DNA of 10,056 nt from Pseudomonadota bacterium (GTDB lineage: Bacteria; Pseudomonadota; Alphaproteobacteria; Paracaedibacterales; CAIULA01): positions 1 to 10,056 of the forward strand of contig JAJZHT010000036.1 in NCBI GenBank assembly GCA_021804455.1, read 5' to 3'. This document shows, piece after piece, positions 1 to 10,056 of this stretch. Both the position numbers and the translations under genes were made by a program. The number at the start of each line of letters is the position of its first letter. Position 1 is the first letter of the stretch. Below the pieces are notes generated by a model. That model did no database searches. It was given only the letters and a program-made list of their open reading frames with translations, and was not told the DNA's origin.

Positions 1-31
1 GTGAGGCTGTTAATTCGTAACGTGCAACCAT
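1..31 (-). CDS. IS5-family transposase, first 10 codons (partial)
   Basis: The ATG is read on the minus strand from base 31 and gives MVARYELTAS before the window ends. It is identical to the start of the transposase at 4151. The IS promoter (TTGCAA and TATACT boxes) lies upstream, in bases 63-90 read on the minus strand. Only the N-terminus is present, so integrity of the gene cannot be judged. Confidence 0.85.
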   Translation of the reverse strand, partial: MVARYELTAS

Positions 32-109
32 AACCTTGTCTCTCTCTTTGATTTTTAAGACAAGTATAAAAATTTATTCTCTCTTTGCAATTTAAATGGT
101 GATTGAACC
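1..109 (-). mobile_element. Left end of an IS5-family insertion sequence, partial (runs off the window)
   Basis: The reverse complement of bases 1-109 matches the left end of the complete IS at 4073-4181 base for base (109/109 by eye), including the terminal repeat that starts GGTTCAATCACC. The outer edge is base 109, followed by TA at 110-111, the dinucleotide also found beside both ends of the complete copy. This copy is inverted relative to the other, and its transposase points leftwards out of the window. Perfect identity suggests recent transposition or ongoing gene conversion. Whether the copy is complete cannot be seen from here. Confidence 0.95.
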
Positions 110-858
110 TAAGCTTTTCTTAAGGTTTTTTTTGGCAAAAGACGCTTCAAGGCCTCCCATTCCATAAAAGCATTTTTTATGTTGTGCTTTCCTGTTTCTT
201 GCACCACTTTTTGACAAACCTCATGACTGGGAATCGAAAGAGACTGCCCCATAGATAAAGCGGCTATTTGAACTGTTGCTGCTTTTTCTAAGGTGTACAT
301 AGTGGTAAAAGCTTCCGCCAAAGAAGAACCCACTGTCAAAAAACCATGGTTGCGTAAAATCATAATATTATTACTTCCAAGGTCGGCAATGAGACTTTCT
401 TGCTCTTCTGGATTGACAGCAATCCCTTGATAATCATGAAAAGAAATTTTTCCATAAAAATGACACGCGTGTTGACTGATGGGAAGCAATCCTTGATCTA
501 AAGCTGAAATCGCCATACCTGTTACAGTATGCAAATGAACCACGGCTGTGATATCCTCTCGGGCGGTATGCAAAGCACCATGAATAATGATTCCTGCGGG
601 ATTAACTTCATAAGGTGTTCGATTCAAAATTTTTCCATCAAGAGATACTTTAACAAGGTTTTCTGGTGTAACTTCATGAAAATGTAAACCAAAAGGATTG
701 ATCAAAAAGCAATCTTTTTGGCCTGGTATCCTTGCAGAGATATGCGTGTAAATAAGGTCTGTCCAGCCAAAACTAGCCGCAAGATGATAAGCCGAAGCTA
801 GATCTTGACGAACTCTCCATTCTGGATCACAAAAAGAGCTATGGGCCAAAACTGACAT
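109..858 (-). CDS. Class II aldolase/adducin-family protein
   Basis: This 249-aa protein has the class II aldolase/adducin fold, a family of zinc-dependent sugar-phosphate aldolases and relatives, probably cytosolic. The metal-binding HxH is at residues 108 and 110 (VVHLHT), and a third histidine, H171, lies in NHGFL. The fuculose-aldolase acid (Glu in SSEWRFH) aligns here with NPAGIIIH, so the usual catalytic acid seems absent. This matches the poorly characterised 'class II aldolase/adducin family' of alphaproteobacteria, and the substrate is unknown. The start is the ATG at 858, with AGAAGGA about six bases upstream. A TTG at 915 would add 19 residues that do not fit the family and has no ribosome site. 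The stop codon TAG spans the IS boundary: TA is the target dinucleotide and G is the first IS base. The native last residues may therefore have been replaced, although the EWEALKRLL end suggests that little was lost. Confidence 0.85.
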   Translation of the reverse strand: MSVLAHSSFCDPEWRVRQDLASAYHLAASFGWTDLIYTHISARIPGQKDCFLINPFGLHFHEVTPENLVKVSLDGKILNRTPYEVNPAGIIIHGALHTAREDITAVVHLHTVTGMAISALDQGLLPISQHACHFYGKISFHDYQGIAVNPEEQESLIADLGSNNIMILRNHGFLTVGSSLAEAFTTMYTLEKAATVQIAALSMGQSLSIPSHEVCQKVVQETGKHNIKNAFMEWEALKRLLPKKTLRKA

Positions 859-961
859 AAAGATTCCTTCTCGCGTTAATCTTTGGGTATTGCCATCTAC
901 TGGAAATAGTAGCAAATATTTAATTTTAAAAAAATTTTAAATTTATTTTTGATAAAATTTT
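859..961. promoter_or_regulatory. Divergent intergenic region, AT-rich, likely promoters
   Basis: This 103-base gap separates the minus-strand aldolase gene from plus-strand ccmB. Bases 913-961 are almost entirely A and T, as expected where two divergent promoters sit. The aldolase Shine-Dalgarno (AGAAGGA on the minus strand) lies just beside base 859. I cannot assign convincing -35/-10 pairs because the run is too low in complexity. No operator-like palindrome stands out. Confidence 0.4.
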
Positions 962-1609
962 ATGAAAAACAAAACTTATTTTCTTTGCCGGTTCTTTTTC
1001 AAGGATGCAAAAGGCCTCACAAGCAGTGTTTTCTTACTCTTTTGTTTAATCCTTATCCAACTGGGCTACATCTTCCACAATGAAGAAGATGTCCTAGAAG
1101 GCCTGTTAACTCTTATCTTCATTATTTTATTTCTAGTTACCACCCATGCCTTCGAACAAACTCTTTATCAGGATCTTCAAGATGGTAGTTTCGAATGGTT
1201 TCTAAGCCAAAAAATAAGCATCTTCACCTATTTTTTTTCCAAATGTTTTGTTTTTATGGTTACAGTTCTTCTTCCGCTTTTAACACTTATAACCTTTATC
1301 CAAAGTCTTCAAAATCTACCGTGGCAACAAAATTTAACCCTATGGATCTGCCTGTTTTTAGCAGGAATTCAAACCGTTTTGATATCGGGTAGTTTAAGCC
1401 TGGGGCTTCTTATCTGCCAACAAAATCTCAATTTCAGCCTTCCTTTCTGTTTATTACCCTTGCAAATTCCTAATTTGATTATCTTAAGAGCTGTGGAAAC
1501 GCAACAAATGGGATCCTTGTCAGCCATTCTTTTCCTTATTGGTCTTAGCCTTTTGGCTGTAGCAACCAGCCAAGCTATTGTTAAAGCGATCTTAAAACCC
1601 TGGAAATAA
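962..1609 (+). CDS. ccmB: Heme exporter / cytochrome c maturation protein CcmB
   Basis: This 215-aa integral membrane protein resembles CcmB, the permease partner of the CcmA ATPase. CcmAB powers release of heme-loaded CcmE during cytochrome c maturation at the inner membrane. Six hydrophobic stretches can be seen, at about 22-40, 44-62, 90-115, 125-150, 155-172 and 184-208. The family signature after the second helix is present as LYQDLQDGSFEWFLSQK (compare D-x-x-D-G-x-L-E in CcmB), and LLPLQIPNLII matches the conserved LPLYIPVLIF region. Length is normal (about 220 aa). The ATG at 962 is the first start after an in-frame stop at 953-955. It has no clear Shine-Dalgarno, only AT-rich sequence. 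No ccmA, ccmC or other ccm gene is adjacent, so the ccm genes appear dispersed, as in Rickettsiales. Confidence 0.78.
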   Translation: MKNKTYFLCRFFFKDAKGLTSSVFLLFCLILIQLGYIFHNEEDVLEGLLTLIFIILFLVTTHAFEQTLYQDLQDGSFEWFLSQKISIFTYFFSKCFVFMVTVLLPLLTLITFIQSLQNLPWQQNLTLWICLFLAGIQTVLISGSLSLGLLICQQNLNFSLPFCLLPLQIPNLIILRAVETQQMGSLSAILFLIGLSLLAVATSQAIVKAILKPWK

Positions 1610-1679
1610 CAAAAGCCCGTCGATAGCATTGCATCCTTTTTCCCTTTCATCCTATGATGGCAATCATAACAATCTCAAC

Positions 1680-2654
1680 ATGAATCCTTTTTCAAAAGTG
1701 CATAATGTTTCTTCTTCCTTAAGTCCTACCCCTTTGTGGCAAGTCCGCATTCGTGTTAATTACTATGGCACCCAAAATGTTTTAAATTTATTGGAAACCA
1801 AAGGATTTAAAGCCCTAGGGTGGTACGAGTGTGAAGACGCCCCTGTTTGCGACGTTGAGGATGAGAATGGCTTTCCTATTGCCTCAGAATTTATCGTAGA
1901 AGGATATTGCCAAACCCAACCTCTGGCGGATCACTTGCGCCCTCATTTAGAAATGATGGCTGCTCTTTTGGGAATTAAAACCCCTGTTCTTTTGTCGTGC
2001 CAACCCGTTGACAATCAGGATTGGTTAGAAAAATGTTATCAAGAACTATCTCCCCAAAAGATTGGTGATTATTATATTTATGGCAGTCATGATCAGGACA
2101 AAGTAGACGTTCCTGCAGGGTTTATACCTCTGCAAATTGATGCAGCAACAGCCTTTGGGAGTGGTGATCATCCCACAACCACAGGATGTCTAACAGCCCT
2201 TAGCGATTTCCGATCGAAGTTTTCTTTTTCTTCGATACTTGATATGGGATGTGGTTCAGGTATTTTAGCAATTGCTGCCGCAAAGACATGGCCTCAAGCA
2301 TCCGTGATGGCTGTTGATAATGACCCTGAATCAGTTCGGGTTACTTTGCATAATGCCCAACTGAACCACTGTGAAACCATTCAATGTGTCCTCAGTCACG
2401 GTTTTGAGGATCCCCTAGTCCAACAAAAGGCACCTTTCACGCTAATTGTTGCCAATATCCTAGCCAAACCGTTATGCGAAATGGCTTTCCCGATGCACCA
2501 ATGTCTTGCTTTGAACGGTGTGATTGTTTTATCGGGGCTGTTACAACGCCAACAAGATCAGGTGTTGCTGGCCTATCAACAACAAGGATTACAACTGAAA
2601 CAAACGTATCATTTTGAAAATTGGGTAACATTGGTTTTAACATGCCAGAAATAA
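1680..2654 (+). CDS. prmA: Ribosomal protein L11 methyltransferase PrmA
   Basis: This 324-aa cytosolic enzyme uses S-adenosylmethionine to trimethylate ribosomal protein L11. The N-terminal substrate-recognition domain covers about residues 18-125. The PrmA hallmark AFGSGDHPTT is at 158-167. SAM motif I, LDMGCGSGI, is at 187-195. The acidic ribose-binding region AVDNDP follows (D213), and the family motif ANILAKPL is at 258-265. The ATG at 1680 is chosen because homology begins soon after it. A TTG at 1629 would add 17 unrelated residues. No strong ribosome site precedes the ATG. The gene lies 70 bases after ccmB, and its last 13 bases overlap pgk, suggesting a ccmB-prmA-pgk transcript. The protein is somewhat longer than E. 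coli PrmA (293 aa), largely at the N-terminus. Confidence 0.93.
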   Translation: MNPFSKVHNVSSSLSPTPLWQVRIRVNYYGTQNVLNLLETKGFKALGWYECEDAPVCDVEDENGFPIASEFIVEGYCQTQPLADHLRPHLEMMAALLGIKTPVLLSCQPVDNQDWLEKCYQELSPQKIGDYYIYGSHDQDKVDVPAGFIPLQIDAATAFGSGDHPTTTGCLTALSDFRSKFSFSSILDMGCGSGILAIAAAKTWPQASVMAVDNDPESVRVTLHNAQLNHCETIQCVLSHGFEDPLVQQKAPFTLIVANILAKPLCEMAFPMHQCLALNGVIVLSGLLQRQQDQVLLAYQQQGLQLKQTYHFENWVTLVLTCQK

Positions 2655-3862
2655 AAGATGATTTGGAAAAGGTAACGTTACCCACCCTGAAAGAATACGA
2701 TGTTAGTGGGAAAAACGTCTTGGTTCGGGTGGACTTAAATGTTCCTATGCACAACGGAAGGATTAATGATTTTTCCCGTTTGGTGGCGATTCGCGATACC
2801 GTTTCTTATTTGCTTAAGCATCAGGCCAAAGTTATTCTTTTATCCCACTTTGGCAGGCCCCAGCCTGAAAACAACCCCACGAAATGGGATCTAGGCTATT
2901 CTTTAGAAGTTTTGGTGCCTGATTTGGCGTCCGTTTTAGGACATCCTGTACATTTTATTCCTCACTATGCAGGGCCTCTTGTTTCAAGAGCTTTGTCTGA
3001 ACAAACTAATGTCCATGTGTTTTTACTGGAAAATATTCGGTATGCTGTTGGGGAAGAAACAAACAGCCAGGATTTAGCCCGTCAACTTGCACAGGGGATG
3101 GATCTTTATGTGAATGAAGCTTTTTCCTGTTCTCACCGTGCCCATGCTTCTCTTGAGGCCATTACCCACGTCCTTCCTAGTGTGGCAGGTTTCAATTTGC
3201 AAAAAGAAGTGGCTTATCTTGAGCGTTGCTTAAGTCATCCTGCCCATCCTGTGACAGCGATTGTGGGAGGATCCAAGGTCTCCACCAAACTGTCTTTATT
3301 GGAAAATTTGGCACAAAAGGTGGATATTCTGGTCATTGGCGGGGCGATGGCAAACACATTTTTGGCTGCTCAGGGTCATACCATTGGTGCGTCCGTTTTT
3401 GAGCCCGCTTTCCTTCCCATGGCACGTAAAGTACTAGCCACACCTGGCGTAACCCTTGTTTTGCCCCAAGATGTTATTGTTGCTTCCCATCTAGAGGCGG
3501 ATCACGGTATTCATAGAAATCTTGATTCTATTCAAAAAGATGAAAAAATTTTTGATATCGGGCCCAACACCGTGCAACACATTATCAGCCTTTTATACTC
3601 TTCTAAAACGATTGTATGGAATGGGCCTGTAGGAGCCTTTGAATATCCACCTTTTGAAAAAGGAACATGGAATATTGCACAGGCTCTCGCCAACGTTACA
3701 TCCCAGGGTGTTTTAACCGTTGCGGGTGGGGGAGATACGCTGTCAGCCCTGAATTCTTTAGGACTAAAAGACCAGCTATCTCATGTTTCAACCGCGGGGG
3801 GAGCCTTCTTAGAATGGCTAGAAGGAAAAGATTTACCTGCTATCCAAGCCTTACGTCCATAA
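2642..3862 (+). CDS. pgk: Phosphoglycerate kinase
   Basis: This 406-aa cytosolic enzyme interconverts 1,3-bisphosphoglycerate plus ADP and 3-phosphoglycerate plus ATP in glycolysis/gluconeogenesis. Visible family motifs are VRVDLNVP (28-35), SHFGRP (68-73), LLENIRYAVGEE (128-139), NEAFSCSHRAHAS (158-170), VGGSKVSTKL (208-217), the nucleotide-site stretch IGGAMANTFLAAQG (232-245), WNGPVGAFE (326-334), GGGDT (362-366) and STAGGAFLEWLEG (383-395). All expected blocks are present and in order, so the gene looks functional. The usual NDAF is NEAF here, a conservative change. The chosen ATG lies inside the end of prmA (13-base overlap) without its own Shine-Dalgarno, which implies translational coupling. 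A TTG at 2621 would add seven residues. Neither gap nor fba, frequent pgk neighbours, is nearby. Confidence 0.95.
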   Translation: MPEIKDDLEKVTLPTLKEYDVSGKNVLVRVDLNVPMHNGRINDFSRLVAIRDTVSYLLKHQAKVILLSHFGRPQPENNPTKWDLGYSLEVLVPDLASVLGHPVHFIPHYAGPLVSRALSEQTNVHVFLLENIRYAVGEETNSQDLARQLAQGMDLYVNEAFSCSHRAHASLEAITHVLPSVAGFNLQKEVAYLERCLSHPAHPVTAIVGGSKVSTKLSLLENLAQKVDILVIGGAMANTFLAAQGHTIGASVFEPAFLPMARKVLATPGVTLVLPQDVIVASHLEADHGIHRNLDSIQKDEKIFDIGPNTVQHIISLLYSSKTIVWNGPVGAFEYPPFEKGTWNIAQALANVTSQGVLTVAGGGDTLSALNSLGLKDQLSHVSTAGGAFLEWLEGKDLPAIQALRP

Positions 3863-3881
3863 TCTTTCCCACATAAATTCC

Positions 3882-4072
3882 TTACCACGGGATCGATTCT
3901 GCATGACGCAGGATTTTCTCGGCATCCTCAGTATAATCGCCTGTTGAATGGTGTAAAGTCATCCCAGGTTGCAAACGCAAAGCCCCATGACTGCTTTTAA
4001 TGCCACGAATCAAGATACGCTTGGCCGGTTTATTTTGGCCTGGCCACAAAGGGTAAAGATTAATATTCCCTA
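3882..4072 (-). pseudogene. 3' remnant of a tRNA1(Val) adenine methyltransferase (TrmN6)-like gene, cut by the IS
   Basis: On the minus strand, bases 4072-3882 encode about 62 residues ending in ESIPW and TAA, with no native start. The only start-like codon is a TTG at 4079, inside the IS. The pattern PLWPGQNKPAKRILIRGIK, then a leucine-rich LRLQPGMTLH and YTEDAEKILRHA, resembles the C-terminal tail of alphaproteobacterial TrmN6-type methyltransferases. In those the tail reads roughly P-hP-x3-x-PA-R-hhhR-hKGS-APL-LLP-hhLH, then FTPEAE. The identification is from memory of that family and is only moderately sure. The missing N-terminal part, about three quarters of a typical protein, would hold the SAM-binding and NPPY motifs, so this piece cannot be active. 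It converges on pgk, with 19 bases between the two stop codons and no hairpin terminator visible. Confidence 0.6.
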
Positions 4073-4093
4073 GGTTCAATCACCATTTAAATT
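4073..4093 (+). repeat. Left terminal inverted repeat of the IS
   Basis: Twenty-one bases starting GGTTCAATCACCATTT are the exact reverse complement of 4904-4924. The same repeat occurs at 89-109 on the minus strand. The pairing ends inside the element, where left reads GCAAAG and right, reverse-complemented, reads AAGC. Confidence 0.95.
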
Positions 4094-4119
4094 GCAAAGA
4101 GAGAATAAATTTTTATACT
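4092..4119 (+). promoter_or_regulatory. Probable sigma-70 promoter of the transposase
   Basis: TTGCAA at 4092-4097 and TATACT at 4114-4119 are separated by 16 bases, close to sigma-70 consensus and spacing. A purine-rich stretch, GAGAGAGACAAGG, precedes the transposase ATG at 4151 and would serve as ribosome site. The -35 box overlaps the inner end of the terminal repeat, so transposase bound at the end could repress it (inference). Transcription runs toward the tra genes, which begin shortly after the right end of the IS. Confidence 0.6.
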
Positions 4120-4150
4120 TGTCTTAAAAATCAAAGAGAGAGACAAGGTT

Positions 4151-4522
4151 ATGGTTGCACGTTACGAATTAACAGCCTCACAATGGCAGAAGGTAGAGCC
4201 CTTTCTTCCCGGCAAATTGACAGACAGAGGCCGAACGGGGAGAGATAACCGTTTGTTTGTGAATGGTTGCTTATGGGTCATTCGTAGCGGAGCAATGTGG
4301 CATCATTTACCGGAACAGTATGGTCCATGGAAGCGGACCTATAATCGTTTTCGTCGTTGGGCACATGCAGGTGTATGGGAAAAGGTTTTTGAGATTTTGT
4401 TGGCAGACAGCAAAAATACATATCGCCTGATTGACAGTAGCATTGTACGGGCTCATCAACACGCAACGACCGGACGTGGTTTAAAAAAAACACGTCTGTG
4501 GGGCGAAGTCGTGGAGGATTAA
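4151..4522 (+). CDS. IS5-family transposase, N-terminal frame (orfA)
   Basis: This 123-aa product holds the N-terminal DUF4096-type DNA-binding part of an IS5/IS427 transposase: the tryptophan-containing segment SQWQKVEPFLP, then GCLWVIRSGAMWHHLP and a basic YNRFRRW stretch. The first catalytic aspartate of the DDE triad is D95 in LIDSSIV, followed by the usual RAHQH. Frame 0 ends soon after a run of eight A (4483-4490), giving a short non-homologous tail (TRLWGEVVED). The full enzyme needs a -1 shift into orfB, giving a fusion of 251 aa. Alone it lacks two catalytic residues and might act as a regulator (inference). The start is the ATG at 4151, with a purine-rich ribosome site. Confidence 0.92.
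   Translation: MVARYELTASQWQKVEPFLPGKLTDRGRTGRDNRLFVNGCLWVIRSGAMWHHLPEQYGPWKRTYNRFRRWAHAGVWEKVFEILLADSKNTYRLIDSSIVRAHQHATTGRGLKKTRLWGEVVED
4483..4489 (+). other. Probable -1 ribosomal frameshift site (A AAA AAA) in the transposase
   Basis: In frame 0 the codons read TTA AAA AAA ACA, so bases 4483-4489 form the slippery heptamer A AAA AAA within a run of eight A. A one-base backward slip continues as AAC ACG TCT GTG, leading directly into VGRSRGGLTTK, the point where homology to the transposase catalytic domain resumes. This is the usual IS427-group arrangement. No clear downstream stem-loop was identified by eye. A slip by RNA polymerase on the A run would have the same effect. Confidence 0.8.
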
Positions 4523-4905
4523 CGACAAAGCTTCATTGTGTCACCGATGGCACAGGCAAACCCCTTAAATTCCTGATCACAGCCGGACAGACTGCAGACT
4601 GCACCCAAGCTGAATCGTTGTTGAAAGGACAAAAAGCAAAAGCTGTATTGGCCGATAAAGGCTATGACACTGATACAATTATTCGCTTTATAAAGCGCTG
4701 TATGAAAGCAAAAGCTGTGATTCCTCCAAAACGTAACCGTAATCTCCGGCGGCGTTATGATAAGCAACTTTACAAAGTACGAAACCTTATCGAAAGGACC
4801 TTTAATAAACTCAAGCATTGGCGGCGGATCTCTACACGATATGACCGATGTGATGTTATGTTCATCTCTTCCGTCTCCCTTGCTTGTATCGCTATTTGGG
4901 CTTAA
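4498..4905 (+). CDS. IS5-family transposase, C-terminal DDE frame (orfB)
   Basis: The 135 residues read from the GTG at 4498 hold the rest of the DDE catalytic domain: GRSRGGLTTKLH, the second aspartate D53 in LADKGYD, IPPKRNR, and the glutamate E99 in LIERTFNKLK, followed by RRISTRYD. These motifs match IS427-group transposases, which catalyse cut-and-paste or replicative strand transfer at the IS ends. The frame is open upstream as far as the A run, and translation most likely comes from frameshifting out of orfA rather than from the GTG, which has no evident ribosome site. The TAA stop at 4903-4905 lies partly in the right terminal repeat. Confidence 0.92.
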   Translation: MGRSRGGLTTKLHCVTDGTGKPLKFLITAGQTADCTQAESLLKGQKAKAVLADKGYDTDTIIRFIKRCMKAKAVIPPKRNRNLRRRYDKQLYKVRNLIERTFNKLKHWRRISTRYDRCDVMFISSVSLACIAIWA

Positions 4906-4924
4906 TTTAAATGGTGATTGAACC
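4904..4924 (-). repeat. Right terminal inverted repeat of the IS
   Basis: This is the perfect 21-base reverse complement of 4073-4093, ending TGGTGATTGAACC, and is followed by TA at 4925-4926. The transposase stop codon overlaps its first two bases. Confidence 0.95.
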
Positions 4925-4964
4925 TAACACTCCTCCTTCTTATATTCGTGAATGGATAGGGTAA
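4925..4964 (+). pseudogene. traL: 3' end of traL, truncated by the IS
   Basis: Directly after the IS, a frame reads NTPPSYIREWIG and a TAA at 4962-4964, nine bases before the traE ATG. F-plasmid TraL, a small inner-membrane protein needed for pilus assembly, ends in DSCFRQWIK, so the S-(Y/C)-(I/F)-R-(E/Q)-W-I pattern matches at the corresponding place. traL is also the gene that precedes traE in F-type operons. Only about 12 codons of roughly 100 remain. The rest, and any traA pilin gene upstream of it, are missing here and replaced by the IS and chromosomal genes. The identification relies on a short peptide plus position, both pointing the same way. Confidence 0.75.
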
Positions 4965-4973
4965 GAGGAAATT

Positions 4974-5555
4974 ATGCACTACGCTATTACCACTCAATAT
5001 CTGAGAGCCTTTAAAAAACAGCGAAATATTTTCATTGGCTTTTTAGCATTGTCTTTGATTGTTAATATTCTTCAAGGATTGGAGCGATTATTTTCTAAAG
5101 AGAAAACGATTATTTTACCGCCTTCTATTCAAAAAGAAATGTGGGTAAGAGGGGCTGAAGTTTCAGAGACCTATTTAGAGGAATGGGCTTACTATCTTTC
5201 TTCTTTGTTGCTTACGGTTTCTCCTAGCACAATTGGATACCAAACAGAGCTCGTTTTAAGACATGTTAGTCCTAGCTTCTACCCTCGCTTAAAACAACAA
5301 TTACGTCAAGAAGCTGAACATTTGCAGAAGAATAACGCCACAACGGTCTTTCAACCCAAAGAAGTGACCATCGACAAGGCGACGATGAAAGCCACAATTA
5401 AGGGGAATTTAACATCTTGGGTCGGAAAGGAACGAGTTTCTGAAAAACCCCAAGAGGTTGAGATAGGCTTTGCCATGACAGCTGGGAAGTTCTTACAGGT
5501 TATCCAATTCGAATTATTCAATAAAGTGACAACTGAGACAGGAGAAGAAGAATGA
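4974..5555 (+). CDS. traE: Conjugal transfer protein TraE (F-type T4SS)
   Basis: This 193-aa protein is close to F TraE (188 aa), a VirB5/VirB8-type component of the mating-pair apparatus anchored in the inner membrane. A single N-terminal membrane helix spans about residues 19-35, followed by NILQGLERL, which parallels SVNVIQG in F TraE. The periplasmic part contains EWAYYLSSLLLTVSPST, HVSPSFYPRLKQQL and the conserved TIKGNLTSWVG (141-151; F has IRGVLKTWIG). Translation starts at the ATG at 4974, with AAGAGGAAA five to eight bases upstream. The end overlaps traK by ATGA. The native operon promoter is presumably lost with traA/traL, so expression may depend on read-through from the IS. Confidence 0.92.
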   Translation: MHYAITTQYLRAFKKQRNIFIGFLALSLIVNILQGLERLFSKEKTIILPPSIQKEMWVRGAEVSETYLEEWAYYLSSLLLTVSPSTIGYQTELVLRHVSPSFYPRLKQQLRQEAEHLQKNNATTVFQPKEVTIDKATMKATIKGNLTSWVGKERVSEKPQEVEIGFAMTAGKFLQVIQFELFNKVTTETGEEE

Positions 5556-6313
5556 ACCTAGACTTTTTGAGATCAATAAAATTTTGTCTTAAATCAGGAA
5601 TTTTTTCTCTTTCCTTATTAGGGATGGTGGAAATGGCATGGGCTAAGAAACAGGTTTTAACTTTGAATGAAGATGAAACGCTGATTGTTAAAGTTATTAG
5701 TCAAGAGGGGCCTATTCGTATTAGTGTGAAGGGAGATCGCCTTCAAGATGTCATGGGTTTAGATGAGTCGATCAATGTCGAAAAAGATGAAACCCACGGT
5801 CTGCTATATTTACGAAACGTGGACAAGAAGCAATCTTTAACGTTCATTACAGAGGGAGGGGTCTTTCAAGACATCACGTTGATTCCTGAAGCGCACGGTG
5901 TTTCAGTGATCGTCATGAGAAGCAAGGATTATGAAGAGGACCCTGCTTTGAAAAAGTCTCTTTCTTCTTTCCGTCAATTCGCCTCTTCAGCCATGAACGC
6001 CCAACCTCCCTTATCCTTTCAAGAGCAAGTTTTGGTCCTTATTAAGCAGCTTTATCAAGGGAGGGGGGCTTTAGAAGAACAAGAGGCCATTCCTGAACGT
6101 TTCACAACTTATAACGTTGTTGCAAAACCTCTTCGTTCTCTTCAAATGGAAGGTATGAGAGGAGAGGTTTATGAAGTGGTCAATACAACCGATACGACTC
6201 TCAATCTGGTTGAAAAGGATTTCTATAGAATTGGGGACTATGCGTTAAGCATTGGTAAAAAACAGTTAGAAAGTGCTGAAAAAACTCTCTTAATTGTTGT
6301 TCGTCATGGTTAA
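5552..6313 (+). CDS. traK: Conjugal transfer protein TraK, secretin-like (F-type T4SS)
   Basis: This 253-aa periplasmic/outer-membrane protein is equivalent to VirB9. In F it forms the core complex in the outer membrane with TraV and TraB. A signal peptide is visible: basic residues (R7, K10), a hydrophobic core at about 16-28, and an AWA site at 29-31 before KKQ. The mature part has an N-terminal beta-rich domain (EDETLIVKVISQEGPIRI, about 40-57; FITEGGVFQDITLIP, 98-112). The C-terminal domain ends in a conserved region, RGEVYEVVNTT through FYRIGDYALSIGKKQL (203-239). Length is close to F TraK (about 242 aa). The ATG at 5552 overlaps the traE stop (ATGA), with AGGAG at 5540-5544 seven bases upstream. 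Confidence 0.9.
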   Translation: MNLDFLRSIKFCLKSGIFSLSLLGMVEMAWAKKQVLTLNEDETLIVKVISQEGPIRISVKGDRLQDVMGLDESINVEKDETHGLLYLRNVDKKQSLTFITEGGVFQDITLIPEAHGVSVIVMRSKDYEEDPALKKSLSSFRQFASSAMNAQPPLSFQEQVLVLIKQLYQGRGALEEQEAIPERFTTYNVVAKPLRSLQMEGMRGEVYEVVNTTDTTLNLVEKDFYRIGDYALSIGKKQLESAEKTLLIVVRHG

Positions 6314-7628
6314 CTTTTTTCTGCATAAAATAAACCTGTTGAAGTCGTCTTTTCAGGCTTTGACGAGGTTTAAACAGTACCTGCTTTTCTTTGGAGCGAT
6401 AGGTACGGTTCTAATGAGTGTCTCGGTCGCTTTAAAAGTAAAGTTTTTTAATAAGGCCGCCTCGCAGACTGAGAAAACCATTCTCTCTCCAGCAAAACAG
6501 AAAAAGATTAGGATTGAGTCAAGCAGTGTCCGTTTAAATCAGCAAGAGGTATGGGTTGACCGTTTAGAGAAAGAACGGGATCTTTTAAAGAAAAGAGTTG
6601 AAGAACTTGAGAAAATGGTTATACCTCTGGCTCAACAACAGTTGAGTCATGCTCATTCCTCACCGTTAAAGACTCATCTTATCCCTAGCACTTCACAAAC
6701 CCTTAATCCTGATTTTCTAGGCTCCACAGGGGATGCACAGACAAGTTTTAGTCCGCCGGATCAGGATCCTGTTGTTTTGAAAGATAAAGCAGGAGGCGTA
6801 TTTTCTGATAAACCTCAACAAAAAGTTCCGTATCAACGAATTTCTTTTAAACTCGATCCTCAATTTTCCAAGAAAATCAAAAGGTCAATCGATCATTATG
6901 TTCCCGCCGGAAGTTTTGTGAGAGGTGTCCTCACAAGCGGGGTGGTCGCTTCGACTTCTATTCAGGCCAGTGCTAATCCTCAACCGGTTCACATTCAACT
7001 AACAGATTTAGGAAATCTGCCTCGGGGTTTTAAGACCGATGTTAAGCAATGTTTTATTATTGGCTCAGCTTATGGAGATTTACCTTCTGAACGCGTTTAT
7101 ATGCGTTTAGAAAAGCTTTCCTGCGTGGAACGGAAGACGGAGGAAGTGATTGAACTTTCTGTTGATGGCTATGTTGCGGGCGAAGATGGAGCTAATGGTT
7201 TACGGGGTCTGATTGTGGATCGATCGGGGCCTGCCATGCGCAACGCTTTTGTTGGCGGATTCTTTTCCGGAATGGGGGAGTTTTTGGGTCAACAAAAATC
7301 GACTATGCCTACTTCTATCCATCAAAGCGGTGTTGCCATGGTCAGCCCTTTGAATGCTCAACATTTGATGCAAGCAGGAGTGGGAAAAGGCATGGGTAAC
7401 GCCATGGAAAAATTCTCTGACTTTTATATTAAGCGGGCCGAGCAATTACAACCGGTGGTTGAAATTGAACCTGGTCGTAAAGTCGATGTGGTTTTCAAGG
7501 CAGGATTTGATATGAACCAAACCGTATACCGCCAAAGCCTGATGAATAACCGTGACAGCGAACGGCGAGACGTTGCATCTCGGACTGATGAACAATCTTA
7601 CCTACCTATGAAAGAATTAACGTCATGA
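6306..7628 (+). CDS. traB: Conjugal transfer protein TraB, VirB10-like (F-type T4SS)
   Basis: This 440-aa envelope-spanning scaffold links the inner-membrane parts to the TraK/TraV outer-membrane ring. The order of parts fits the family. A cytoplasmic N-terminus leads to a membrane helix at about 25-44. A charged heptad-like coiled coil follows at 81-108 (VDRLEKERDLLKKRVEELEK), then a linker rich in Pro/Ser/Gln (112-175). The conserved C-terminal domain starts with VPAGSFVRGVLTSG (199-212) and continues with SAYGDLPSERVYMRLEKLSC (254-273) and GVFSGMG-type FFSGMGEF (319-326). Cysteines C249 and C273 match the two conserved ones in F TraB. Length is near F TraB (475 aa). The ATG at 6306 lies inside traK with an 8-base overlap and no clear Shine-Dalgarno, implying coupled translation. 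A TTG at 6294 would add four residues. Confidence 0.93.
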   Translation: MVNFFLHKINLLKSSFQALTRFKQYLLFFGAIGTVLMSVSVALKVKFFNKAASQTEKTILSPAKQKKIRIESSSVRLNQQEVWVDRLEKERDLLKKRVEELEKMVIPLAQQQLSHAHSSPLKTHLIPSTSQTLNPDFLGSTGDAQTSFSPPDQDPVVLKDKAGGVFSDKPQQKVPYQRISFKLDPQFSKKIKRSIDHYVPAGSFVRGVLTSGVVASTSIQASANPQPVHIQLTDLGNLPRGFKTDVKQCFIIGSAYGDLPSERVYMRLEKLSCVERKTEEVIELSVDGYVAGEDGANGLRGLIVDRSGPAMRNAFVGGFFSGMGEFLGQQKSTMPTSIHQSGVAMVSPLNAQHLMQAGVGKGMGNAMEKFSDFYIKRAEQLQPVVEIEPGRKVDVVFKAGFDMNQTVYRQSLMNNRDSERRDVASRTDEQSYLPMKELTS

Positions 7629-8023
7629 ATCCCATTTTAAGGTCAGCTCTTCTTCTCGTTATCCCCATTATTTTGAATGCTTGCGCTCCTTTGGGTCAAG
7701 AAAGCTTTTCAACAGAACCGGGTTCAGGATTTGGTTGGAAAAGTATGCAAGAAAATCATCAAATTATTCACCAAACGGGAGAGAGTTTTGGCAGCCAAAA
7801 GCCTAACATTTTGCCTCTGACAATGACGCCAGACCCTTTTTTGATGCAGGCAGGACCCTTAACCTCAGTCCAGCGAGCGCCTGAACAAGTCGTAAGGGTC
7901 TGGTTTGCGCCTTATCAAGATGAACAGGGGAATCTTCATGAAGAGGGAGCCGTGCACACAGTCATTCAGACGGGTCAATGGACGGTCCCTCCTTTTTCTT
8001 TAGATGAAAAACCTTTGATGTAA
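7625..8023 (+). CDS. traV: Conjugal transfer outer-membrane lipoprotein TraV
   Basis: This 132-aa lipoprotein is equivalent to VirB7 and anchors the TraK/TraB core in the outer membrane. The signal peptide is hydrophobic (8-18) and ends in the lipobox LNAC with C20 as the lipidated residue. The C-terminal signature VRVWFAPYQDEQGNLHEE (90-107), followed by VIQTGQWTVP, matches F TraV (ALWIAPYIDNQDVYHQ, then FFVIKPSAW). It is shorter than F TraV (171 aa), mainly through a reduced middle linker, and lacks the extra cysteines that follow the lipobox in F TraV. The ATG overlaps the traB stop (ATGA). No traP lies between traB and traV, as in other compact tra operons. Confidence 0.88.
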   Translation: MNPILRSALLLVIPIILNACAPLGQESFSTEPGSGFGWKSMQENHQIIHQTGESFGSQKPNILPLTMTPDPFLMQAGPLTSVQRAPEQVVRVWFAPYQDEQGNLHEEGAVHTVIQTGQWTVPPFSLDEKPLM

Positions 8024-8053
8024 ATTATTTTCAAGCGAGAGGAAGCCAAAAAC

Positions 8054-10056
8054 ATGCTTAAAACTTTTAAACACCGTTTAAAAAAGCTTTTTATGGAGGA
8101 AGATCTTTATCAAGGGGCGTCGATGAGCTTAGAAACCTTTCGGGCTTATCATCTTTGTTATTCTTTAAAAGATAGTTTACCTTACGAGTCCTATGAAGAA
8201 GGAATTTATTTTAACCGTACAACGCTTGGTTTTGTCTTAGAAAGCTTACCCATCATGGGCTTTAGTGAAGAATCCCATAAGCAAATTTCTGGGCTTTTTC
8301 AATACCTCTTACCCGAGAATTCAAACATTCAGTTCCTTTTAATGGCAGACCCTTATATTGGAGGAGCTTTAGAAGAATGGCAAAAGGTGAGGGATCATGC
8401 ATCCTCTATTTTGAGTAAAGTTGCTTTTTATCGGACCCAGGCTTTTAAAGAGTTAGCCTCTTGCGAAGGAAAGGCCTTATCCGCTCGTTTTTTCCGTCTG
8501 ATTCTATCGGTGACATTGCCTTACGAGAAGCAAGCCTCTAAACCTTTAGCTCAAGCGGTTGGAGAAATGAAAGAATTAAAAGAACGACTCCAGGAAACCT
8601 TAAAGATGGTCGGTCTGCACTGTTTGAATTTGGCGCCTGCTTCGCTAATCAGTCTGATTGATGATTTCTTTTTTGCTAACCTTAAGGAACAGGGTTTTAA
8701 ACCTTTTGTTCCAGATTATAATCCCTATGATCCCATCCGTTTCCAGACGCCTACCCGAAATACTTCTCTTCAAGTTACAAAAAAAGGTCTCATCATTAAT
8801 GAGAACCAACAATATTTTCGGTCGTATCAAGTTGCCAAGTATCCCTTGCAATGGGATCAGTTCCATATGGGTGAATTGATTGGTAGCTCAATGCAATTGC
8901 TGCAACAACTACCCTTTCCGTTCTTTATTCATTACGGCATCCATATCCCCGCCCAAACAGAAATCCAATTTAAATTTACAACGAAGGCTTCGCACTTAGA
9001 ACGACAGCTCATCTCGCCGATTGCTAAGTATTTACCCACCATGGGTAAAGAGTGGCAAGAGTATCAGTTTGTTAAAAGACAATTGGCCGAAGGGCACCGA
9101 TTCGTTAAAACGCATATGAGTATTGCTTTCGTGGCTCCTCCTCATCAGGTCAATCGCTATGAACAAATGTTGCTCAATTTATATTTATCGAAAGGGTTCC
9201 AGTTAAGAGAAGACGATTTTTTCCATCTGCAATCTTTTTTGACTCTTTTGCCGATGAGCTTCAGCGATTCCTATTTGAAAGACTTGGCGTCCAGCAAAAA
9301 ACTAAAAACGACCATATCCTCTGAATCGGCAAACTTATTACCCATTCAAGGTGAATGGTATGGAACACAATCACCAGGCATGTTGCTGTTGGGCAGACGG
9401 GGTCAAATCACCTTTTGGTCTCCCTTTGATAATAATTCTGGTAATTACAACGTTTCCGTGGTTGGACGATCGGGCTCAGGAAAATCGGTGTTTATGCAAG
9501 AACTCATGACCTCAACCTTGGGTCAGGGGGGCCGCGTTTTTGTTTTAGATGTGGGGAGGAGTTTTGAAAAAACGTGCTTATTGTTAGAAGGTCAATTTAT
9601 TGAATTTACGCCGAAAACACCTCTCTGTTTAAACCCTTTTTCCAGTTTAAAAGGCCAAACAAGGGAAGAAGTTGAGGACTCTTTATCCATGTTGAAGTCT
9701 ATTCTCTGTACCATGGCCGCTCCTAACCTCGGTGTAGACGACTTAGAGGCTTCTTACCTGGAACAAGCCATGCGAGAAAGCTGGCGCCAATACCAGGAAA
9801 AGACAACTTTAACAAAGATTGCTCAAAGGTTGTTAGAGAATAAGGATAAAAAAGCAAACGGGCTCGGCATCATGCTTTACCCTTATACGAAAACAGGAAT
9901 CTATGGACGTTTTTTTGAAGGGGAAGCCAATGTTGATTTTCAGAAGTCTTTAGTTGTTTTAGAACTCGAAGAATTGAAAGAAAGGAAGGATTTACAGGCC
10001 GTTATTGTTCAAATGGTGGTTGTCCATATCACCAACCAAATGTTTTTAGGGGATCG
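8054..10056 (+). CDS. traC: Type IV secretion ATPase TraC, VirB4-like (5' part, runs off the window)
   Basis: The open frame runs from the ATG at 8054 to the window end without a stop: 667 codons of an expected 800-900 (F TraC 875 aa). TraC is the VirB4-type ATPase at the cytoplasmic face that powers pilus assembly. The N-terminal TraC_F_IV-type domain covers about residues 25-440. The P-loop domain opens with GNYNVSVVGRSGSGKS, with Walker A GRSGSGKS at 471-478 (K477). VFVLDVGRSFE follows (D499), then LCLNPFSS, and finally SLVVLELEELKERKDLQ, the block that precedes the Walker B aspartate-glutamate, which lies beyond the window. The ribosome site AGAGGAAG at 8038-8045 is eight bases from the ATG. 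The gap to traV is 30 bases. Nothing looks broken in the visible part. Confidence 0.93.
   Translation, partial: MLKTFKHRLKKLFMEEDLYQGASMSLETFRAYHLCYSLKDSLPYESYEEGIYFNRTTLGFVLESLPIMGFSEESHKQISGLFQYLLPENSNIQFLLMADPYIGGALEEWQKVRDHASSILSKVAFYRTQAFKELASCEGKALSARFFRLILSVTLPYEKQASKPLAQAVGEMKELKERLQETLKMVGLHCLNLAPASLISLIDDFFFANLKEQGFKPFVPDYNPYDPIRFQTPTRNTSLQVTKKGLIINENQQYFRSYQVAKYPLQWDQFHMGELIGSSMQLLQQLPFPFFIHYGIHIPAQTEIQFKFTTKASHLERQLISPIAKYLPTMGKEWQEYQFVKRQLAEGHRFVKTHMSIAFVAPPHQVNRYEQMLLNLYLSKGFQLREDDFFHLQSFLTLLPMSFSDSYLKDLASSKKLKTTISSESANLLPIQGEWYGTQSPGMLLLGRRGQITFWSPFDNNSGNYNVSVVGRSGSGKSVFMQELMTSTLGQGGRVFVLDVGRSFEKTCLLLEGQFIEFTPKTPLCLNPFSSLKGQTREEVEDSLSMLKSILCTMAAPNLGVDDLEASYLEQAMRESWRQYQEKTTLTKIAQRLLENKDKKANGLGIMLYPYTKTGIYGRFFEGEANVDFQKSLVVLELEELKERKDLQAVIVQMVVVHITNQMFLGD

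What the first reader, a model, noticed from the sequence alone, without database searches (positions are those of the whole stretch)
3882..4964. The complete IS joins two unrelated broken genes: a recombination joint, not a simple insertion
Left of the IS is the 3' end of a TrmN6-like methyltransferase gene. Right of it is the 3' end of traL. A single insertion would leave two halves of one gene. The arrangement fits homologous recombination between an IS in a chromosomal methyltransferase gene and an identical IS in traL of a conjugative element, comparable to Hfr formation by F, or an IS-mediated deletion. The integration model makes a sharp prediction: a reciprocal joint with the traL 5' part, the same IS, then the methyltransferase 5' part.
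Basis: partly seen in the sequence, partly recalled or inferred. Interest (0 to 1): 0.7.

Follow-up and report, generated by a model that had tools for sequence, protein, structure and literature searches.

The report
Ordinary IS insertion, unresolved repeat joint
A common type of jumping DNA interrupted a methyltransferase gene in the usual way, and because the same element occurs again nearby in reverse, what lies on its far side cannot be known without long reads; this is an ordinary situation in fragmented genomes.

Summary
A complete 852-bp IS5-type element (4073-4924, TA on each side) sits between the 3' part of a TrmN6-like methyltransferase (MTase) gene and the last 12 codons of traL. 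The missing MTase 5' part is in the same assembly: contig C74 ends with it, then TA, then 97 bp of the opposite IS end. The two parts meet without loss or gap, 254 codons, and abut in 19 of 19 fetched relatives' loci. So the MTase was hit by one simple insertion. The window begins inside another, inverted IS copy beside an aldolase gene, so segment 112-4070 lies between inverted copies. Flipping it restores MTase5'-IS-MTase3'. Both orders have identical k-mer content up to k = 857, so short reads cannot choose. The assembly shows four IS ends from three genes and no TraL match. With only two copies, one hybrid joint with traL is real, but its partner (MTase or aldolase) is unknown. With three or more, every insertion may be simple. 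Hfr-like integration is possible but not needed; a one-step deletion is excluded for one clonal genome. Known kind, low interest.

The parts
1..111 (-). left end (109 bp) of another, inverted copy of the same IS plus TA; the contig begins inside it
   Evidence: 100% match to reverse complement of 4071-4181
112..4070 (.). 3,959-bp segment bounded by inverted IS copies: aldolase, CcmB-like, prmA, pgk, MTase 3' part; orientation unresolved
   Evidence: k-mer test
112..873 (-). class II aldolase gene, variable C-terminal tail cut by the IS copy at 1-111
   Evidence: PF00596 7e-48; C-terminus compared with six relatives
3882..4070 (-). 3' part of TrmN6-like methyltransferase; the 5' part is on contig G000:C74:3872-4445
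4071..4072 (.). TA next to IS left end; also present next to the IS right end on C74 (target-site duplication of the MTase insertion)
4073..4924 (+). complete IS5-family (IS427-group-like) insertion sequence, 852 bp, 21-bp terminal inverted repeats
4151..4522 (+). transposase frame A
   Evidence: NF033580 6.8e-35
4483..4490 (+). run of eight A; a -1 slip here would join frames A and B
   Evidence: slip is inference
4498..4905 (+). transposase frame B
   Evidence: NF033580 2.3e-45
4925..4926 (.). TA next to IS right end; not diagnostic, all four IS ends seen in the assembly carry TA
4926..4964 (+). last 12 codons and stop of traL (first codon shares the A of the TA)
   Evidence: one search compared with relatives
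4974..10054 (+). F-type transfer genes traE, traK, traB, traV, traC (traC cut by contig end)

Best explanation
An IS427-group-like element inserted once, in the ordinary way, into the MTase gene at a TA inside CTAG; its two halves are C74:3872-4445 and window 3882-4070. The same IS occurs at least once more, inverted, with a left end beside the aldolase gene, and a right end joins traL. Because the repeat (TA-IS-TA, 856 bp) probably exceeds what the reads could span, the contig's step from MTase 3' through the IS into traL is most likely a path chosen by the assembler among identical copies, not a demonstrated chromosomal joint. Shown: the halves, the IS ends, the identical k-mer content. Inferred: short-read data and an arbitrary path.
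For: C74 ends with the MTase 5' part + TA + 97 bp of the IS right end, 100% identical. Flanks joined at one TA give an uninterrupted 254-codon gene, the length of the closest intact homologue P0002 (254 aa, 86% over the 5' half). The two halves abut in 19 of 19 relatives' loci fetched (L009-L027; L010 holds only part of the 5' half). The truncated MTase with its IS-coded tail stands on 3 contigs, the longest 26,005 bp, so the insertion is seen repeatedly, though the independence of those contigs is unknown. The flipped and unflipped orders share identical k-mer multisets at each of eight tested k up to 857. The two free IS ends stop after 97 and 109 bp of IS; contigs of two related assemblies also begin inside (other, diverged) IS copies: four of G020 and two of G036 open with a transposase match of 120-135 bases.
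Against: The assembler did cross the IS here, which could reflect real read-pair support; no reads were available. With exactly two copies, some hybrid joint with traL must be real, so the reading in which every insertion is simple needs a third copy and two unseen flanks (traL 5', the far side at the aldolase). None of these was found, although the assembly is only 84% complete and an IS end shorter than 16 bp at a contig end would have been missed.
Confidence: 0.5

Rival explanations
1. A real inversion of segment 112-4070 by homologous recombination between two inverted IS copies. The older order was MTase5'-IS-MTase3'-pgk-prmA-ccmB-like-aldolase-IS-traL3'; the contig shows the flipped order, with MTase5'-IS-aldolase as the other joint.
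For: The copies at 1-111 and 4073-4924 are inverted relative to each other and identical over the 111 bp that can be compared. This reading uses exactly the two left and two right IS flanks seen and needs no unseen flank. Inversions flanked by inverted IS copies are common elsewhere: in a study of 31 Bordetella pertussis genomes 20 of 25 rearrangement boundaries were IS481 (PMC4888882, passages read).
Against: It cannot be told from an arbitrary assembly path with reads under 858 bp. It still leaves the aldolase/traL joint to be explained by an earlier event. If only two copies existed and MTase3'-IS-traL was truly resolved, C74-IS-aldolase should have been joined too, and it was not.
Confidence: 0.28
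2. Hfr-like integration: a conjugative element with the IS in traL recombined with the IS in the chromosomal MTase.
For: It fits the contig joint, and C74 would be half of the predicted reciprocal joint. F is inferred to integrate by such IS recombination, e.g. via IS3 (PMC11148124, passages read). The genome holds further F-type transfer genes on C148 and C62.
Against: No TraL match in the assembly; the far side of C74's IS end is unknown; it needs a third copy to explain the aldolase IS end; no evidence that the tra region was ever a separate circle.
Confidence: 0.1
3. IS-mediated deletion running from the IS in the MTase into traL.
For: Adjacent deletions and recombination between identical ISs are documented causes of missing target duplications (PMC11708052, abstract read).
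Against: The deletion would have removed the MTase 5' part and its neighbours, which are present on C74 still joined to the IS right end. It survives only if the bin mixes strains.
Confidence: 0.03

Closest known systems
IS427 group of the IS5 family (e.g. ISPaes1, 851 bp; ISPaes2, 841 bp)
   Same: Length about 850 bp, short inverted repeats, 2-bp target duplication in most listed members, and in some members two overlapping frames with a frameshift motif (Paracoccus table and text, PMC3281130, passages read); transposase matches NF033580
   Different: 21-bp perfect inverted repeats; no nucleotide match in 41 other genomes of the order or in the plasmid collection, and no exact match of its 21-bp end in viral contigs. 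No comparison with ISfinder was possible, so the group is by resemblance.
IS481-bounded inversions of Bordetella pertussis
   Same: Segment between inverted IS copies whose order short reads did not resolve (PMC4888882, passages read)
   Different: Here one 4-kb segment in one fragmented assembly, with no long-read proof
F integration through IS3 (Hfr formation)
   Same: Would give chromosome-IS-transfer-gene joints (PMC11148124, passages read)
   Different: Reciprocal joint not found; no circular parent shown

Membership tests
IS5 family, IS427 group | IS5-type transposase | tested here: met
   NF033580 above cut-off for both frames
IS5 family, IS427 group | about 830-865 bp with inverted repeats and (mostly) 2-bp target duplication | tested here: met
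   852 bp, 21-bp repeats, TA on both sides of the MTase insertion; group values from passages of PMC3281130, where one listed member has 4 bp
IS5 family, IS427 group | two overlapping frames with a frameshift motif (some members) | tested here: met
   4151-4522 and 4498-4905, A8 run at 4483-4490; the frameshift itself not testable
IS5 family, IS427 group | sequence match to a named IS427-group element | not tested
   ISfinder not available
Simple IS insertion in the MTase | both gene halves present, abutting, with target duplication and opposite IS ends | tested here: met
   C74 and window
Hfr-like integration through the IS | reciprocal joint traL 5' - IS - MTase 5' | tested here: inconclusive
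   not found: no TraL match in the own assembly, but it is 84% complete and C74 ends inside the IS
IS x IS inversion | inverted identical copies bounding the segment | tested here: met
   1-111 against 4071-4181 reverse complement; only 111 bp of the first copy visible
IS x IS inversion | reads joining C74 - IS - aldolase | not testable with these tools
   no reads available

The most novel reading that the evidence does not exclude
A conjugative F-type element integrated into the chromosome of this alphaproteobacterium by recombination between IS copies, so that it could transfer chromosomal genes in the manner of an Hfr.
Probability: 0.1. Interest if true: 0.4.

Novelty: already known. Interest (0 to 1): 0.15.

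Why it matters
Mainly as a caution: an IS crossing in a fragmented assembly should not be read as a chromosomal joint before all IS ends in the assembly are listed and paired. If the Hfr-like reading were true, it would show transfer of chromosomal genes by an integrated F-type element in a little-studied alphaproteobacterial lineage.

Tried and rejected
One-step IS deletion: rejected for a clonal genome because the MTase 5' part is retained. One gene on both sides of the IS: rejected; MTase 3' and traL 3' have separate full-length relatives. TA on both sides as proof of a simple insertion at the window joint: rejected, since all four IS ends seen carry TA.

Looking for the other half of the aldolase insertion: in 5 of 5 family loci examined (L073, L085, L086, L087, L089) a convergent gene of one family begins within 1 kb of the aldolase match, identified as dprA by Pfam in the one relative tested. 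In the window's genome the dprA gene (Pfam) lies mid-contig on C18 (27,620 bp) and dksA on C165. The fetched stretches, 20,000 bp of C18 and all of C165, hold no 16-base word of the IS, and one search lists no IS match on either contig. So this gave no flank. Synteny of pgk and MTase: in the stretches fetched (MTase from seven family members, pgk from six) none held both, so it did not help to choose the order. IS copies elsewhere: no DNA match in 57 other genomes or 41 others of the order (overlapping set), in plasmids; no exact end match in viral contigs. Diverged transposase relatives do exist in 26 of 57 other genomes. TraE in viral contigs: no relative. Scan of genome contigs with TraC: one relative, 60%. 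The longer contigs in the protein database (26,005 and 18,647 bp) could not be fetched with the tools at hand.

Full report
What is there. The window is the whole of contig C170 (10,056 bp) of a fragmented genome of 1.2 Mb in 174 contigs, 84% complete. The other genomes of its order examined here have 1.1-2.8 Mb. Names given by sources to related proteins are mostly Alphaproteobacteria; the first species name in the listed aldolase hits (120 listed of 5,739) is Candidatus Finniella inopinata, 69% identical, a genus NCBI places in Holosporales, Candidatus Paracaedibacteraceae. One protein hit is only a hint at placement. From left to right: 111 bp of an IS end, a class II aldolase, a CcmB-like gene, prmA, pgk, the 3' part of an MTase, a complete IS, the 3' part of traL, then traE, traK, traB, traV and part of traC.

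The IS. It is 852 bp (4073-4924) with 21-bp perfect inverted repeats. Both overlapping frames match the IS5-family model NF033580 above cut-off. An A8 run at 4483-4490 lies where a -1 slip would fuse them (the slip is inferred). Size, repeats, 2-bp duplication and two frames fit the IS427 group as described for Paracoccus (PMC3281130, passages read); no named element was compared.

The MTase was hit by one simple insertion. Searching the own genome with the IS gave the complete copy and two partial ends: window 1-111 and C74:4446-4544; an exact 16-base end pattern gave the same four IS ends and no other. C74 carries an Omp85-family gene, a polyprenyl synthetase gene (Pfam) and an MTase 5' part that runs into TA and 97 bp of the IS right end. 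The window holds the MTase 3' part against TA and the IS left end. Joined at one TA, the halves give 254 codons without interruption; P0002, the closest intact relative listed, also has 254 residues. In relatives' loci L009-L027, 19 of 19 have the two halves abutting in one gene (L010 holds only part of the 5' half). These 19 are the relatives' loci fetched out of 51 relatives (of 57) with a match. The truncated protein with its IS-coded tail is present on 3 database contigs, the longest 26,005 bp, so the disruption is not a one-contig accident, although the contigs may come from the same sample.

What the contig cannot tell. Four IS ends are seen: left ends against MTase 3' and aldolase, right ends against traL 3' and MTase 5'. 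The copy at 1-111 is inverted relative to the complete one, so 112-4070 lies between inverted copies. Reversing this segment turns the contig's order (MTase5'-IS-aldolase ... MTase3'-IS-traL3') into MTase5'-IS-MTase3' ... aldolase-IS-traL3'. A script built both orders from C74 and the window: their k-mer multisets are identical at k = 55, 99, 141, 250, 500, 800, 856 and 857 and differ at 858 and 900. Reads or inserts shorter than that cannot choose. The sequencing type is not known; 174 contigs, and contig ends lying about 100 bp inside the IS, suggest short reads (inference). Contigs of two related assemblies likewise begin inside other, diverged IS copies: four of G020 and two of G036 open with a transposase match of 120-135 bases. 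The assembler did cross the IS in the window, and I cannot exclude that read pairs supported it.

How many copies. With exactly two copies the four ends come from three genes, so at most one gene can be paired and one hybrid joint with traL must be real, with either MTase 3' or aldolase as partner. With three or more copies every insertion may be simple, and the missing flanks (traL 5' part, far side of the aldolase) would lie in the unassembled or unbinned part. The TraL family search found no match in the own genome, while 15 of the 58 genomes searched have one. The dprA-type gene that lies next to the aldolase, convergently and within 1 kb, in 5 of 5 family loci examined (Pfam in one) is elsewhere in this genome, mid-contig on C18, with no IS match there. 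Gene order here has thus changed for other reasons too, and this gives no further flank.

Hfr-like integration predicts traL 5' - IS - MTase 5'. C74 shows IS - MTase 5' but ends within the IS, and no TraL match is in the assembly. The model also needs a separate copy beside the aldolase. It is possible but not favoured. A one-step deletion conflicts with the retained MTase 5' part. Such IS-based events are known: F is inferred to have integrated via IS3 (PMC11148124, passages read), IS481 bounds 20 of 25 rearrangement boundaries in a B. [quoted passage not shown]

Verdict. The MTase insertion is shown. The link from MTase 3' through the IS to traL is a contig statement that the sequence cannot verify: most likely an assembly path (0.5), next a real IS x IS inversion (0.28), then Hfr-like integration (0.1). 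These odds are judgements, not computed. All are known kinds of event. Interest is low.

Noticed in passing
G000:C62:1-5186 (L096): A second, diverged F-type transfer cluster (traK-like at 3-632; TraC homologue at 2313-4763, 41% to the TraC of L052), so this small genome seems to carry at least two such systems.
   Followed up: partly
G000:C148:1-11496 (L095): Possible continuation of the window's transfer operon: TraU 3' half at the contig end, then TraH, TraG-type and coupling-protein genes.
   Followed up: partly
window 4974-5555; P0241: The TraE cluster at 90% identity has 4 member sequences and a representative differing by one residue on an 18,647-bp contig, while the truncated-MTase and aldolase clusters have one sequence each on 3 contigs; the transfer region may vary more between strains or copies.
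   Followed up: partly
window 3862-3882: pgk and the MTase 3' end converge 19 bp apart, a neighbourhood not seen in the stretches fetched from family members (MTase from seven, pgk from six); perhaps a rearrangement point without an IS.
   Followed up: partly
window 962-1609: A CcmB-like gene below the curated cut-offs (PF03379, TIGR01190) stands between aldolase and prmA, with no ccmA next to it; in five family loci a CcmB-like gene lies near the same aldolase.
   Followed up: no
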